Origin: Bacteroidetes bacterium 47-18
Lineage (GTDB): Bacteria; Bacteroidota; Bacteroidia; Chitinophagales; Chitinophagaceae
Assembly (NCBI GenBank): GCA_001897155.1
Contig: MKSF01000021.1
Span: 1-64,000, forward strand
Length of the DNA: 64,000 nucleotides
Direction: 5' to 3'
The translations under genes and the position numbers were made by a program. This document shows, in pieces, positions 8,944 through 14,982 of the stretch. Positions within the stretch are counted from its first letter, which is position 1; every line of letters begins with the position of its first letter. The notes below the pieces were generated by a model. That model worked only from the letters and a program-made list of their open reading frames with translations, was not told the DNA's origin and ran no database searches.

Positions 8944-11900
8944 TCACCTTACCTCTATGGTCTTAACGCCAGAAGTACCGTAGTTGAGCGGCATATACAT
9001 CATTTCTATCTTGGCAGGATTCATGGTAAATACCCCTTTATATTGCGCTTTCACAGGAATACTGAAGGTATAAGTACCCTTTTTGAGCGCCGGCAACGCG
9101 ATATTCACCTGCTCATCAAGGTATTCCCTGTGAGATTCATAACGGTGGCGGGCAGGTTCCGCCTTAGCTATACAGCCGGCAGGCAGCGGTATTTCCAGCA
9201 CCATAAATTCCGCGTCTTTCTTCACTTCCACTTCCACCAGCAGCTCAAAGTCTTCAAAAAGGCCTACCCGGCAGGTGGTCGTATCTTTCCTGTTGATAAA
9301 GGTCTTTACGGCAAAAACATCACTTTTATGTACGCCCAGCGTATCCCGCTGCCTGTAATAGTATGAGAAGAATACAGGCCGGTAGCCCGATTTGGCCACC
9401 TTTACAGCCGCATCGCTGTTTAAGCTGCCTGTATATGGAAAACGGGTAATGGTATCATTACCGACACAAAGACGGACCTCTTCTTTTTGTATGGCCGCGA
9501 GATCCAGCGTACGGGCAATAGCCTGTATGGCCAGGGATGATTCGTAAGTGTTACGCCAGCCGTTAAATGAGCGGTTAGCTATCAGCCAGAAGGCCACCCG
9601 GCCGGGACGAACGGCAGGATTCAGCTCCGGCTGACTTACAAGGCACTGCAGGGCATAAGCATTCAGCACCATATCATTGTTCCATAAAGACCCTGAATCA
9701 GCAGTAAAATAGGCATTACCGTAAACATCCGAATGATAGTTCAGGAATTCCCGGCTGTATTGTTTCATCACCTCCGTACTGAGCATCGCTATCAGCTGAT
9801 ACCGCTGCACGGTATGCAGTGCAGGGCGCAGCCTGCTGTCATCCAGCATACGCGTGATCACCGTATCCAGGTATGCCTGTGATGTTCCTAATCCTTTCAG
9901 TATCTCCAGCAGGCTGATCTTGCTGCGATGATCCATGGTACCGTCCAGCCGGCTTTCCATATACACCTGCGTGGCTTTTGTAAACCCTGCAGGCTGCGTC
10001 ATTTCCTTCACCGTGCCGGCCAGCAGCAATGCCTGGTAGGCACGGGCTGACACCCAATAATCAGCAGCTCCCTCACCCCACCAGCTCCAGGTACCATCTG
10101 CTTTCTTTCTTTGCAACAGCAGCTCCACATACCTGTTAAGCGCCTTGTATATTTTCCCGTCCACCGGCTCATCCAGCGCTTTCCGGATACGGATATAATT
10201 CACCAGCCCTATGATCTTGGCAGATAATTGCTCATTGCACAGGTGCCTGTAACGGAATAGGTACATGGCTTCTTCTTTTATGATATCATACTGCTGTGTA
10301 TATGCTGCCACCAGCACTTCTTTTCCCGGAGACAGTTGTTTGAGGAATATCGCGGTATCGCCGTTCAAGACCACAGCCTCGCCTTTATTCACCACCACGC
10401 CACGCGGCAGGACAGGAAGATCATGCACTTCCCCGTCCAGGTAGCCGTCCTCTTTGACAACCTCGTATTGAACTTTCATATGCTCTACACCGGTTTGCGC
10501 CTTCAGCAGCAGGACATCATCATAGGACCTGAACAATGCAATGCTTTTACCCGATACCACCGAATCGTTCAGGGATAGCCTGGCAAGGAGGGTCAGGGAA
10601 TCCGGCGTCAGGTTCTGTATGGTATTGGAAAACCATAAGCTGTCACCTTCCACGATAAACCGCGGCAGGTGGGATGTGGTAAATAAAGGCTTGAAAGCAT
10701 TGACGGTGGCCTGGTACTTGCCCCGCAGCTTTCTGCCTTTAGTGGCTATTATAGCCGCTTCCCAGGCAGTAATATCATCCGGGTATCGTACGGTAAAGGC
10801 GGCCTTACCATACTTGTCGGTGCGGACATGAGGTATCCAGAATGCGGCATCGTTAAAATAGCTCCGAAGGGAAGCCGTACCTTCCGGCTGATCGCCCGGC
10901 ACCGTCTGGCTTGCAATATCCGCGGGCAGGTCTGCCGGGTCGTAATCCTTTGTACTGATAAAGATCACACCGTTCCTGGCCGCATCACCATATAAGGCCA
11001 CATATGCCGGGTCGGTTACCACTTTGAACGTGTTACGCACTTTTTCGCTGAATGCAAGTATGCTGCCATTGTATAGTTTATTGTCTACAATGATGAGCGG
11101 CATTAAAGTATCAGGAGCGATTGCATTGACACCGGCAATGTTAACATTACCGGACACATACCTGCTATCAATAGTAGCAGAAGTAATACGGCCTGCTGAG
11201 CCCACCCATTTAGTCTTCTGCATTTCTCTGCCACTATAACGTTCCGTAATCTCTATGCCAAATAACGAACCTTCCAAAGGCAAGACAACGTTTTTTTCAA
11301 TGACCCGGTGAGTTTTGTTGCTTTTCCAGCCTCTGACAGCATCGTCATCATTGAGAGCTTTGCCCAGCTTCCAATTTTCGCCGCCATATAATGCTTCAAG
11401 AGACGTATCAGGATCTATTGCAGTTGCCGGGATATACAATGTATAATTTCCATCACTGTCTGAAAAAGTGCCAAAAGCTTTATACCTGATCCATACCGGC
11501 CCAGGGACTGGAAAGTCCTCAAACTGTACCTTCCCTTTCAAAGCGGCCGTATAATTTTTATAATACGTTCTCAATAAATATTGGATAAGCAATGCACCAC
11601 GCTCACCATTAGTTGTAGCATATGACAATATATCCTGTAATTCTCCTCCAATCAATGTATCATATATTTCAGGTTGAGACAGCCTTACATGATACCAGCC
11701 CGATCTTCCCAGATCAATATCTTTTTCCATATACATCCGCTTACTGTCAAGAAGAGCAATATCGTAAAGTCCCTTTTTCAGCCTGTAAGCACCCGCAATA
11801 TCTGCATTGACAAATTCATATTCAAACGGATCGTTTTTCTTGATGAATAATATATTCAATTGACTGCTGTCCGGTGCGTATGAAGTATCAGAAACAACAG

Positions 11901-14900
11901 GACCATAATCCAGGCGTACCCTTACATCAGCATCCAGCGTATCTTTAAACTTCATACCGGCCCAGACAGACCTTTTCCATAGCACCTGATACCTTTTATC
12001 CCGGATCTCCGCCATCACACCTGAATATTTTTTCTCAAACCTGCTATTATATACTCTCAACCTGGGTATTCCGGCCTCTCGCAGCATGTCCCTATACACA
12101 CTATTGTCAAGTGATGTTAAAACGGAACGGTTGGGGCTTTCAAAGTAGTATGCATACCCCGGCAATATCCTGGGTTCTGTAATGCTATACCTGACTGGTA
12201 ACCTGCTGCTTTCTTTAGCATACTCATTATTAACATCATAGGACCAGATACAATTACGAACGGGCGCAATGAGTGCATAGGGCTCCCTGTCACGTAACAG
12301 GAGATCCGATAAAAGGAGCGTATCATAGCCCGGCAGCAGAACAGCGGCCTGTGCAAAGCCCTCCGACTTCCTATCTATTGCCAATGTATGGGCCCTAAGG
12401 TCCTGCAGTGCCCTGTCATATTTATAAGGTATTATGCTGAAAGGCAGCAACGCGCCAGCCATACGAGGTTTCAGGACGACTATTTTTACTACTTTCTGAT
12501 CCTCCCGCGGAAGAAGGTCCACCATAACATCGTATAGCGTATCTCCCGAAAGCAACTGTATACGGTGGGTCTGCGAGGTATCATTTGATATTTTTACAGC
12601 ATAGGGCTGTGTCACATCTGCACCTCCCATATAATGCATACTATTATTATACCGCACAAAGACTACCGGTTGTATCCTATTGTTCTTGATGACTACCGGG
12701 ATAATATAGCTGAAAGTATCAGGACTGGCATATATGAATTCCTGGTATACGGTATCTTTATACAACATTGTATAGTAATCCTGTTCCGACAGCCTGAACT
12801 TTTCCTTCCAGGTATTGTATTGCAATCCGGTCCTGTCCTCCAGGTAAAGTTTGTAGACCTGCTTATAATTACGACCGCCTTTCTTTTGTTTACCGGGACG
12901 GAGGTACTGAAACCTGTCAAAAGCACTTTTCGCTGTAAACTTATTGGTATATGCATAAGCAAAAAGCGAGGCGTTTTTAACTTGTTTACCCTTGTTATCC
13001 GTAACAGTGACCTGCCATTCATCAAGAGCGCCCGGGAATATCTTCTGCCGGTGCTGTACCTCAAAATTAAGCCTGTAATCAGGCTTATCCAGGGCAAAAG
13101 AGTAGAATTGAGATTTGCCCGCCCATAAAGCGTTCATGAACAAATAATGTTCCTTACCGGGATTATACGGGTATGTAAAGCTTTTTAATACCTCATCCGA
13201 TATTATCTTGTCCAGCTCACGATTAGCCCGGTAGGTAAATAGCTGATACCGTATGCCATAAGGATTGTGAACTGATATATACAGCTTGCCACCATCTACA
13301 TAGCTGTTGATCGTGACGGGCTGATCTTCCAGCTCCTGTATGCTGAACGTCCGGGTACGGCCGGTGATACTGTCTGTCAATGCTATGCTTTCCACAACCT
13401 GGTTGACATGCCATAAAGCATATTTTTCGTTCTCTTTCAAGCGCAAAATTCCAGCAGTAACAGGATGCCCGAATGCGTCATATCCCCTTAGCCATAAGGG
13501 ATGCATCAATGTATCTTTATCACATATATTAAATATACGCATATCACCTTTATAAGGATGCAGTACAAGATTGTTGATCCGGCTCCAATACCTGCCGTTC
13601 CCTGATATTTCCTTTGTATAATCTCCATAACTTATTTGGCATTTGATACGAAAAGCCACATTACGGTCTTTGAAAATACTATCCGGGATATACAGCTGAT
13701 AACCGGATATATCTTCCAGTACCGTATCCAGACTATACAGCGTATCGGGCATGAACAATATGCTGCCACCTGTCCTATCAACCTCCATCAATGAGTCGGT
13801 CAGGATTATCAGCTTCAGGTTAGCGCCATATACGGGAATATCAGCCTTGGTAGACATTTTAAAATCAAGGGGTGCAATATTACCCCGGTACCAGTCTTCC
13901 TTGGGCAATTCCACCTGGAAGTCATAATTATCCAGGTTGTATTGCCTGACGGGGAAACTTATCCGGTTCCGGACGCCTACATTCTTTAATATAATAGTGT
14001 ATTGCCTGTCAGCCGTTATTCCCAGACTGTCATCCAGGACAAACTCCAGGTCATAACCATTATCTCCCGGAGCAACAGACAGTTTTGAAGTGATGCTCTT
14101 TTTATCAAAATCTATTCTCACGGATACCGGGCGCTTATAAAAACGGTTATTATAACACTCCAGGTAGATTTTAGTCCTGACCGTATCGCCTTTCCGGTAT
14201 TCGGGCTTAGAGAAGAAACATGTGGGCGTAAGATATGGGGATATAAAGTAATGACGGTTAGATCTCAATAGCTGGTAGGCCAACCAGCTATTATCATAAT
14301 AGTCACCTCTGCAGTAATCATAAAATTCCTTATTGAAAGGAATAGACAGAATAGCATCAGGTGAAGACAACAGGTCAAAGACATTCCAGGCATAGAGATT
14401 ACGGATCACTGAAGATTGCGGTACAACCCCGGTTGTCATAAACTGTTTATTCAGCGCCATCCAATATTTCCGGTCCCGGATCTTTATTTCCAATACACCG
14501 CTGTTGAAATCAAAAGGGGTACGGTAGGATTTTATAGCCGGGTCGTAATGAAGCTTATACGAACCAATACGGACCTCTGCATTTTCAACATATGCCAGGC
14601 TTTTCTTATCGAGCAGCTGGACACCCAGCCCGCCGTATTTATTATTATAGACAATATGAAAAGGAATTTTCGGAAGCAGCTCGTAAGACACCTTGTAGGG
14701 GCTGCTGAGTGTTGCGGTCAAATAATAGCCGTCCTCGTACGTGTCCTGGTCAATATGTTCCGAGGTGAAATTATAATCAGCCACCTGTAAACTTTTCAGG
14801 AGGACGGTATCCTCTACCCCGTTGTCAAACAATACCTTTTCCGCCTGCTCATTATTCAGCCTGAAGAGGACCACAGGATGCCTGACCGTATCTGCATCAT

Positions 14901-14982
14901 AATAAAAATATTCCTGCGCACGGACGTTCCGTACCAGGCCATGTATCCAGCATAACAGCAGCAGCAATAATACCCTTTTCAT
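8944..14982 (-). CDS. Giant alpha-2-macroglobulin family protein with TonB-plug-like insert
   Basis: 2012 residues; E. coli-type A2M is about 1650. Order: signal peptide (1-23, ending VRAQ); MG domains with the MG2 signature PEYRKGDTVRTKIYLE near 257; a carboxypeptidase-regulatory-like beta domain near 1160-1190 (SDGNYTLYIP); a segment at about 1290-1340 that looks like a TonB-receptor plug core (PLIIVDNKLY, then VALYGDAARNGVIFISTKDY); the A2M domain with DDITAWEAAIIATKG near 1405; a thioester-domain CNEQ near 1580 keeping the CxEQ Cys and Gln; and an alpha/alpha barrel plus receptor-binding-like beta domain to the C-terminus. Expected role: envelope protease trap. No pbpC partner is adjacent, unlike in enterobacteria. 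A pure plug/receptor function is unlikely because no beta-barrel follows. Confidence 0.88.
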   Translation of the reverse strand: MKRVLLLLLLCWIHGLVRNVRAQEYFYYDADTVRHPVVLFRLNNEQAEKVLFDNGVEDTVLLKSLQVADYNFTSEHIDQDTYEDGYYLTATLSSPYKVSYELLPKIPFHIVYNNKYGGLGVQLLDKKSLAYVENAEVRIGSYKLHYDPAIKSYRTPFDFNSGVLEIKIRDRKYWMALNKQFMTTGVVPQSSVIRNLYAWNVFDLLSSPDAILSIPFNKEFYDYCRGDYYDNSWLAYQLLRSNRHYFISPYLTPTCFFSKPEYRKGDTVRTKIYLECYNNRFYKRPVSVRIDFDKKSITSKLSVAPGDNGYDLEFVLDDSLGITADRQYTIILKNVGVRNRISFPVRQYNLDNYDFQVELPKEDWYRGNIAPLDFKMSTKADIPVYGANLKLIILTDSLMEVDRTGGSILFMPDTLYSLDTVLEDISGYQLYIPDSIFKDRNVAFRIKCQISYGDYTKEISGNGRYWSRINNLVLHPYKGDMRIFNICDKDTLMHPLWLRGYDAFGHPVTAGILRLKENEKYALWHVNQVVESIALTDSITGRTRTFSIQELEDQPVTINSYVDGGKLYISVHNPYGIRYQLFTYRANRELDKIISDEVLKSFTYPYNPGKEHYLFMNALWAGKSQFYSFALDKPDYRLNFEVQHRQKIFPGALDEWQVTVTDNKGKQVKNASLFAYAYTNKFTAKSAFDRFQYLRPGKQKKGGRNYKQVYKLYLEDRTGLQYNTWKEKFRLSEQDYYTMLYKDTVYQEFIYASPDTFSYIIPVVIKNNRIQPVVFVRYNNSMHYMGGADVTQPYAVKISNDTSQTHRIQLLSGDTLYDVMVDLLPREDQKVVKIVVLKPRMAGALLPFSIIPYKYDRALQDLRAHTLAIDRKSEGFAQAAVLLPGYDTLLLSDLLLRDREPYALIAPVRNCIWSYDVNNEYAKESSRLPVRYSITEPRILPGYAYYFESPNRSVLTSLDNSVYRDMLREAGIPRLRVYNSRFEKKYSGVMAEIRDKRYQVLWKRSVWAGMKFKDTLDADVRVRLDYGPVVSDTSYAPDSSQLNILFIKKNDPFEYEFVNADIAGAYRLKKGLYDIALLDSKRMYMEKDIDLGRSGWYHVRLSQPEIYDTLIGGELQDILSYATTNGERGALLIQYLLRTYYKNYTAALKGKVQFEDFPVPGPVWIRYKAFGTFSDSDGNYTLYIPATAIDPDTSLEALYGGENWKLGKALNDDDAVRGWKSNKTHRVIEKNVVLPLEGSLFGIEITERYSGREMQKTKWVGSAGRITSATIDSRYVSGNVNIAGVNAIAPDTLMPLIIVDNKLYNGSILAFSEKVRNTFKVVTDPAYVALYGDAARNGVIFISTKDYDPADLPADIASQTVPGDQPEGTASLRSYFNDAAFWIPHVRTDKYGKAAFTVRYPDDITAWEAAIIATKGRKLRGKYQATVNAFKPLFTTSHLPRFIVEGDSLWFSNTIQNLTPDSLTLLARLSLNDSVVSGKSIALFRSYDDVLLLKAQTGVEHMKVQYEVVKEDGYLDGEVHDLPVLPRGVVVNKGEAVVLNGDTAIFLKQLSPGKEVLVAAYTQQYDIIKEEAMYLFRYRHLCNEQLSAKIIGLVNYIRIRKALDEPVDGKIYKALNRYVELLLQRKKADGTWSWWGEGAADYWVSARAYQALLLAGTVKEMTQPAGFTKATQVYMESRLDGTMDHRSKISLLEILKGLGTSQAYLDTVITRMLDDSRLRPALHTVQRYQLIAMLSTEVMKQYSREFLNYHSDVYGNAYFTADSGSLWNNDMVLNAYALQCLVSQPELNPAVRPGRVAFWLIANRSFNGWRNTYESSLAIQAIARTLDLAAIQKEEVRLCVGNDTITRFPYTGSLNSDAAVKVAKSGYRPVFFSYYYRQRDTLGVHKSDVFAVKTFINRKDTTTCRVGLFEDFELLVEVEVKKDAEFMVLEIPLPAGCIAKAEPARHRYESHREYLDEQVNIALPALKKGTYTFSIPVKAQYKGVFTMNPAKIEMMYMPLNYGTSGVKTIEVR

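What the first reader, a model, noticed from the sequence alone, without database searches (positions are those of the whole stretch)
8944..14982. 2012-residue alpha-2-macroglobulin with TonB-plug-like insert and CNEQ thioester
The insert near residues 1290-1340 shares the plug core of SusC/TonB receptors (IIVDNKLY, then ALYGDAARNGVIFIST), yet no beta-barrel follows. The thioester CNEQ retains both reactive residues. No pbpC partner is present. It could be a membrane-anchored protease trap using a plug-like module for docking or as bait.
Basis: partly seen in the sequence, partly recalled or inferred. Interest (0 to 1): 0.5.

Follow-up and report, generated by a model that had tools for sequence, protein, structure and literature searches.

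The report
Protease trap baited with receptor plug
A bacterial alpha-2-macroglobulin (a protein built to trap proteases) carries, at the place where such proteins keep their protease bait, a worn copy of the front end of a SusC-type nutrient receptor without the receptor's barrel, which hints that the trap may be baited with a piece of the cell's own receptor.

Summary
The finding is real and larger than described. Window 8944-14982 (minus strand) encodes a 2012-aa thioester A2M. The plug-like stretch is residues 1279-1346; with an upstream NTE-like domain (1144-1224) and a Ton-box-position segment (1243-1261) it forms a degraded SusC N-terminus without barrel. It ends before R1373/F1376, which align with the post-bait residues R730/F733 of human A2ML1, so it sits in the bait slot (anaphylatoxin domain in complement). 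Of 96 subfamily proteins read, the window's included, 82 match a SusC N-terminal profile in that slot and none outside it. The module seems to have been replaced more than once: clearly in one genus, less surely in two more lineages, the window's among them. A [K/R]TKWVG motif occurs three times in the window's genome: in its one SusC-length signature protein and in the slots of both A2Ms. Most likely it is a secreted or periplasmic covalent protease trap whose bait derives from SusC: anatomy well supported, bait function inferred. A membrane anchor is not supported. AlphaFold models are poor (pLDDT 42-44), so the plug fold is unproven. New variant of a known kind.

The parts
8944..14982 (-). 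alpha-2-macroglobulin gene, 2012 aa
14917..14982 (-). probable signal peptide, residues about 1-22, no lipobox
   Evidence: sequence; cleavage site judged by eye
12943..13065 (-). probable first half of the MG6 domain (residues about 640-680), before the bait slot
   Evidence: alignment with relatives; inferred, no family match; pLDDT 65-82 for residues 635-674
11311..11553 (-). NTE-like (CarbopepD_reg-type) domain, residues 1144-1224
   Evidence: Foldseek rank 1 is the NTE of SusC BT3090 (9hfj, prob 1.00, but E 4.7e-3); VIA Z 6.9, with FimD ushers at 7.7 above it; HMM only 5.4 bits; CarbopepD_reg_2 matches 93 of 108 slots of the set
11200..11256 (-). Ton-box-position segment IEITERYSG and MQKTKWVG motif, residues 1243-1261
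   Evidence: aligned with the genome's own SusC ATVQTYGGKMEKTKWVG
10945..11148 (-). SusC plug remnant, residues 1279-1346; the middle of the plug is missing
   Evidence: 22.7 bits, E 3.4e-7; TIGR04057 below cut-off; alignment
10855..10866 (-). R1373-S-Y-F1376, aligned with R730-Q-Y732-F733 of human A2ML1 (BR-C, just behind the bait)
   Evidence: alignment; R in 108 of 108 and F in 106 of 108 slots; role from passages of PMC9156758
10594..10845 (-). A2M domain PF00207, residues 1380-1463
   Evidence: E 1.3e-12
10228..10239 (-). thioester motif CNEQ, residues 1582-1585
   Evidence: CxEQ in 107 of 108 of the set
8989..9249 (-). bMG10 C-terminal macroglobulin domain, residues 1912-1998
   Evidence: E 8.7e-13

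Best explanation
It is a secreted or periplasmic thioester alpha-2-macroglobulin whose bait slot (the insert in the MG6 domain, just before the BR-C residues) is occupied by a captured SusC N-terminus: NTE, Ton-box region, plug, no barrel. Shown by sequence: the homology of the module (strong in relatives, weaker in this copy), its position, the retained thioester residues and BR-C anchor. Supported but not closed: that the module was replaced more than once. Inferred: the plug, having no barrel to fold into, together with the basic stretch after the Ton box, is the protease-accessible bait; a cut there lets BR-C retract, opens the molecule and exposes the CNEQ thioester, which couples to the attacking protease. 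If the bait copies the lineage's own receptor for a reason, the trap would be tuned to proteases able to cut SusC from the periplasmic side.
For: A profile of 15 A2Ms matches SusC structures over NTE+Ton box+plug at E 8.3e-47, and human A2M resumes directly behind it; with 8 sequences SusC is matched to profile position 687 and human A2M from 694. 82 of 96 subfamily proteins have SusC matches in the slot (the 330 residues before the A2M domain), 0 of 108 proteins elsewhere, at E under 1e-3. CxEQ in 107 of 108; BR-C Arg in 108 and Phe in 106 of 108. The plug part is less conserved than the rest in 33 of 37 close pairs (pairs not independent), as expected of a bait; L048/L185 0.50 against 0.97. 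Of the 7 pairs (of 14) in which the script found the Ton box, plug dN/dS is 0.07-0.19 in six and 0.68 in one, C-terminal body 0.04-0.12: constrained, but mostly less than the body. A2M modules of genus g32 group with that genus's SusC (95/91) and one origin of 17 modules is rejected, p-AU 0.021. The [K/R]TKWVG motif occurs three times in the genome, in a SusC and in both A2M slots; window and SusC share 16 of 21 residues there, 11 of these with different codons.
Against: No experiment. Both AlphaFold models are poor (pLDDT 42.1 and 43.9) and no plug is among the 50 listed Foldseek matches of either. The least conserved 50-column window lies in the slot in only 14 of 37 pairs. 14 of 96 subfamily proteins show no SusC match. 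One origin was not rejected on 24 modules (p 0.161); the set that rejected it was chosen after the similarities were seen. Over the whole module the window's best matches, its own SusC and an A2M of another genus, tie at 66.2 bits. SusC plugs also sit in barrel-less proteins of this genome that have no bait, so the module may have another role. The window copy is on a long branch and may be decaying.
Confidence: 0.6

Rival explanations
1. The module is a TonB-coupling or docking device: the Ton box of the barrel-less plug binds TonB (or another SusC partner), which places the A2M near the envelope machinery or pulls on it.
For: A Ton-box expression fits 44 of 54 full modules (14 of the 21 SusCs fit the same expression), and these columns are nearly as informative as in SusC (3.12 against 3.27 bits per column); the motif behind the Ton box is kept in both A2Ms of this genome; 7 TonB_C matches in the genome.
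Against: Only 6 of 30 NTE-only slots fit the expression; the window copy has only a divergent equivalent; no barrel to gate; the second A2M keeps the motif alone, without a plug match.
Confidence: 0.2
2. Passive capture: SusC N-termini are abundant and the bait slot tolerates inserts, so copies land there without a function of their own.
Against: The window's genome has one SusC-length frame over the signature cut-off yet several plug copies; plug dN/dS is under 0.2 in six of seven usable pairs; no copies in these A2Ms outside the slot.
Confidence: 0.15
3. The stretch is an ordinary MG domain with chance likeness to plugs.
For: Pfam calls no Plug in the window copy; TIGR04057 is below cut-off.
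Against: 22.7 bits against at most 8.4 in 2160 shuffles; a relative's module passes the TIGR04057 cut-off (65.8 against 46.2 bits); the best match of residues 1231-1352 in the set compared is the genome's own SusC (E 1e-11).
Confidence: 0.02

Closest known systems
E. coli / Salmonella A2M (ECAM, YfhM)
   Same: bacterial thioester A2M with CxEQ motif and a bait insert
   Different: lipoprotein at the inner membrane, largely disordered bait, Pbp1C suggested as partner (passages of PMC4498604); here a plain signal peptide, no PF06832 in the genome, SusC module in the slot
Human A2ML1 / A2M
   Same: R-x-Y-F behind the bait and the following MG region align; bait is an insert in MG6 (passages)
   Different: bait is a linker, not a captured domain
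Complement C3/C4/C5
   Same: a folded domain, the anaphylatoxin domain, replaces the bait in the same slot (passages of PMC9156758)
   Different: unrelated domain; no SusC homology
SusC/RagA TonB-dependent transporters (BT1763, BT3090, RagA)
   Same: NTE, Ton box and plug in the same order
   Different: no beta-barrel; the module lies inside an A2M
Other barrel-less plug proteins of the same genome (anti-sigma-like protein, 131-aa secreted protein, DUF4139 protein; L227)
   Same: SusC plug without a barrel
   Different: no A2M domain, no thioester

Membership tests
Alpha-2-macroglobulin family (bacterial) | A2M domain PF00207 and bMG10 above Pfam cut-offs | tested here: met
   47.8 against 21 and 49 against 26.2 bits; TED_complement is below its cut-off (18.1 against 22)
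Alpha-2-macroglobulin family (bacterial) | thioester motif CxEQ | tested here: met
   CNEQ 1582-1585; whether the bond forms could not be tested
Alpha-2-macroglobulin family (bacterial) | bait insert in MG6 followed by conserved R and F | tested here: met
   R1373 and F1376 aligned with A2ML1; the first half of MG6 is inferred only
Alpha-2-macroglobulin family (bacterial) | protease-triggered trapping | not testable with these tools
   needs purified protein
ECAM/YfhM type with pbpC | lipoprotein anchor | tested here: not met
   no lipobox by regular expression in the window protein
ECAM/YfhM type with pbpC | PBP1C partner (PF06832) | tested here: not met
   0 matches in the genome, which is 98.8% complete
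SusC/RagA TonB-dependent transporter | N-terminal NTE, Ton box, plug | tested here: inconclusive
   plug significant, NTE weak by HMM but first Foldseek hit, Ton box divergent; clear for the family profile
SusC/RagA TonB-dependent transporter | beta-barrel behind the plug | tested here: not met
   A2M domains follow
SusC/RagA signature TIGR04057 | 46.2-bit cut-off | tested here: not met
   21.3, 23.9 and 27.8 bits in the window; 65.8 bits in the A2M of relative G424

The most novel reading that the evidence does not exclude
Bacteroidia A2Ms practise self-mimicry: the bait is repeatedly rebuilt from the cell's own SusC receptor, so that a protease able to attack the receptor's Ton-box/plug region cuts the decoy first and is caught; bait and receptor evolve in step.
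Probability: 0.22. Interest if true: 0.8.

Novelty: new variant of a known kind. Interest (0 to 1): 0.6.

Why it matters
The bait decides which proteases an A2M catches, and I know of no established target protease for bacterial A2Ms (recalled). A bait derived from a receptor gives a direct, testable guess about what these traps defend, and it would be a second domain class, after the anaphylatoxin domain of complement, to have entered the same slot. It also warns that profile searches may name such genes SusC: one relative's A2M passes NCBI's SusC signature cut-off.

Tried and rejected
AlphaFold of residues 615-1490 and 1120-1483 gave poor models. Foldseek on the first listed A2M structures on top, at probability 0.10 or less; taken as uninformative. 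Foldseek on the second gave no match at E 0.001 or better; its first hit is a SusC NTE. VIA-align 2 mostly tested model residues 25-105; FimD ushers score Z 7.7-7.4, above the SusC NTE at 6.9, so it does not single out SusC, and the plug part was hardly tested. One origin of the module: not rejected on 24 modules (p 0.161), rejected on 17 chosen after (p 0.021); the test on all 51 was not finished. The three changes forced could formally also be one gain and two losses. I first held that the window copy had lost its Ton box; comparison with the genome's own SusC shows a divergent equivalent. In one search the script placed the Ton box wrongly in 7 of 14 pairs; I use the other 7 for dN/dS. One search carries two swapped genome labels (L221, L222). 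On second reading I found the tie and lowered the novel reading from 0.25 to 0.22. Promoter and terminator scans were at chance level.

The set of 108. Eight high-scoring rows were not fetched (G473, G263, G596, G699, G670, G625, G687, G769; mostly short frames). L164 was dropped as the same gene as L077, and L076 was left out as the same gene as L033. The border between the subfamily (96) and the 12 others was set at 200 bits; L147, at 150 bits, fell among the 12. The 12 others are a hand-picked part of many low-scoring rows.

Literature (held open-access library only). Searches found no paper; one search listed three and search 50 seven, none on this by their listings; two gave papers cited here or listings; 49 was swamped by 'susceptibility'; one listed ten of 39, none on barrel-less plugs by listing. 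That isolated plugs are unfolded is recalled (FepA work); one search found nothing. Papers were seen as passages only: PMC4498604, PMC7782687, PMC9156758.
Full report
What was checked. The gene lies on the minus strand of the window, 8944-14982, start codon at 14982, 2012 aa. Pfam finds A2M (PF00207, 1380-1463) and bMG10 (1912-1998) above cut-off, and TED-like and squalene-cyclase-like matches (1576-1661) below cut-off. Seven of nine neighbours tested have Pfam matches (aldehyde dehydrogenase, DUF3127, M49 peptidase, 2'-5' RNA ligase-like, RNase H, histidine kinase, GH3); they do not suggest an operon. No BiPBP_C domain was found in the genome.

More than chance. Against NCBIfam the SusC/RagA signature matches at E 1.7e-4 (whole protein) and 2.6e-5 (slot), below the curated cut-off. 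An HMM of 21 SusC N-termini from genomes (21 of 30 loci passed the script's filter) scores 22.7 bits at 1279-1346; 257 of 2160 shuffled slots gave some hit, at most 8.4 bits. The NTE part of the window reaches only 5.4 bits.

Relatives make it clear. In 98 genomes of the family, 72 matched at E 0.001 or better, but many of the listed matches are SusC-length frames matched by residues about 1145-1346. A profile of the A2M part separates two sets: in 394 family genomes 63 rows score over 200 bits and the next score 140 and 119; in 396 class genomes 39 rows score over 200 bits, one 157, the next 117. I read 108 proteins: 96 of this subfamily, the window included, and 12 others. Slot by slot, at E 0.01 or better and not necessarily over cut-off: CarbopepD_reg_2 in 93 of 108, Plug in 57, TIGR04056 in 73, TIGR04057 in 53. 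With my HMM at E under 1e-3: subfamily 82 of 96 in the slot (NTE 81, plug end 54, both 53), others 5 of 12, and none of the 108 outside the slot. Profiles of 15 and 8 sequences match solved SusCs at E 8.3e-47 and 5.3e-37. One relative's module passes NCBI's SusC signature cut-off.

The position is that of the bait. The SusC match ends at profile position 687 and human A2M begins at 694. In human A2ML1 linker and bait form one insert in MG6, complement replaces the bait by the anaphylatoxin domain, and residues behind the cut, R730 and F733, are highly conserved and are proposed to pull the chain out after the cut (PMC9156758, passages). In the alignment these are R1373 and F1376 (chain numbers 712 and 715 plus the offset of 18 that also fits Y732). 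Arg is in 108 of 108 slots, Phe in 106. Cleaved ECAM likewise works by freeing the bait (PMC4498604, passages). BT1763 has the order NTE, Ton box (DEVVVTG), plug (PMC7782687, passages), as the relatives have.

Structure. Two AlphaFold runs with eight sequences gave pLDDT 42.1 and 43.9; residues 1290-1359 reach 56-78 in blocks of ten. Foldseek's first hit for 1120-1483 is the NTE of SusC BT3090 (prob 1.00, E 4.7e-3; none at E 0.001 or better). VIA-align gives it Z 6.9 and the NTE of BT1763 Z 5.3, but unrelated ushers score up to 7.7. The plug fold is not shown by structure.

How it evolves. On the A2M tree (a quick tree) the full-module label needs 11 changes, at least 9 forced by well-supported branches. 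The window is on a long branch and its place is unsure. In the 7 of 14 pairs in which the Ton box was placed rightly, plug dN/dS is 0.16, 0.19, 0.07, 0.13, 0.15, 0.11 and 0.68, against 0.04-0.12 for the C-terminal body; some dS values are high. Over 37 pairs (not independent) the plug part is less conserved than the rest in 33, and the least conserved window lies in the slot (NTE included) in 14. Module trees with 51 A2M modules and 39 receptors and with 24 and 30 unite the A2M modules in no bootstrap tree, but one origin was not rejected in the second (p 0.161). With 17 modules and 18 SusCs, including SusCs of the genera concerned, one origin is rejected (p 0.021); this set was chosen. There the modules of genus g32 group with that genus's SusC with good support (95/91); those of g2 stand beside a group of the g2 SusC and the window genome's SusC, with weaker support (80/82). 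The window's module was not in that tree.

The window's own lineage. Its genome has nine TIGR04057 matches, of which one SusC-length frame (C37, 1073 aa) and a 318-aa frame pass the cut-off; TIGR04056 was not run on it. Residues 1231-1352 match this SusC best (E 1e-11, 55.1 bits), ahead of the best A2M relative (51.6 bits); over the whole module SusC and that A2M (L182) tie at 66.2 bits. Behind the Ton box the SusC reads YGGKMEKTKWVGSAGQITSA and the window protein YSGREMQKTKWVGSAGRITSA; the second A2M of the genome (C8, L049), without a SusC HMM match, has FGGSMERTKWVG in its slot. The DNA pattern for the motif core occurs three times in the genome, at these three places, and in one of 28 other genomes, whose two matches encode H and N, not K or R, at the first place. 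Sixteen of 21 residues agree between SusC and the window, 11 of them with different codons; SusC and L049 share 10 of 21. So the likeness is not a fresh DNA copy and seems kept at protein level. In genus g32 SusC and A2M share VYGxKxDxRxYxG-like sequence.

Interpretation. Shown: A2M architecture, SusC kind of the insert, its slot. Supported: more than one replacement. Inferred: that it is the bait, and that copying the own receptor is selected. A barrel-less plug should be flexible and easily cut (recalled). The main rival is docking through the Ton box: a Ton-box expression fits 44 of 54 full modules, 6 of 30 NTE-only slots and 14 of 21 SusCs. Other barrel-less plugs in this genome, in an anti-sigma-like protein, a 131-aa secreted protein and inside a DUF4139 protein, show that the plug can have uses that have nothing to do with bait; this counts against the specific bait reading.

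Verdict. New variant of a known kind; interest 0.6.

Noticed in passing
L227:456-4308 (window's genome, C13): Cluster of an ECF sigma factor, an anti-sigma-like protein (by position and a membrane-spanning stretch; no Pfam anti-sigma match) with a C-terminal SusC plug, a 131-aa secreted plug protein and a DUF4140/DUF4139 protein with a plug inside DUF4139; two of the plugs share 61 of 86 residues.
   Followed up: partly
L049:3623-9583 with L049:855-3314 (window's genome, C8): Second A2M of the genome (1986 aa) next to an 819-aa outer-membrane receptor (CarboxypepD_reg, OMP_b-brl_3); its bait linker holds a lone RTKWVG motif.
   Followed up: partly
L179 and L180: Tandem A2M genes in two genomes in which one copy has a full SusC module and the other does not, by the labels.
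   Followed up: partly
L131, L132, L134, L135, L138, L169 slots: A second plug type (FRGARADGTAYYIDGVRV-like) sits in the same A2M slot (output cut in the middle).
   Followed up: no
L146: One A2M relative shows no CxEQ in the stretch searched, possibly a thioester-less A2M.
   Followed up: no
L185 and L048: Two A2Ms 96-98% identical in the body but 0.50 identical in the plug slot: a fast-changing bait slot.
   Followed up: partly
L245 (G031:C8): A 189-aa frame in which only a SusC plug was recognised.
   Followed up: no
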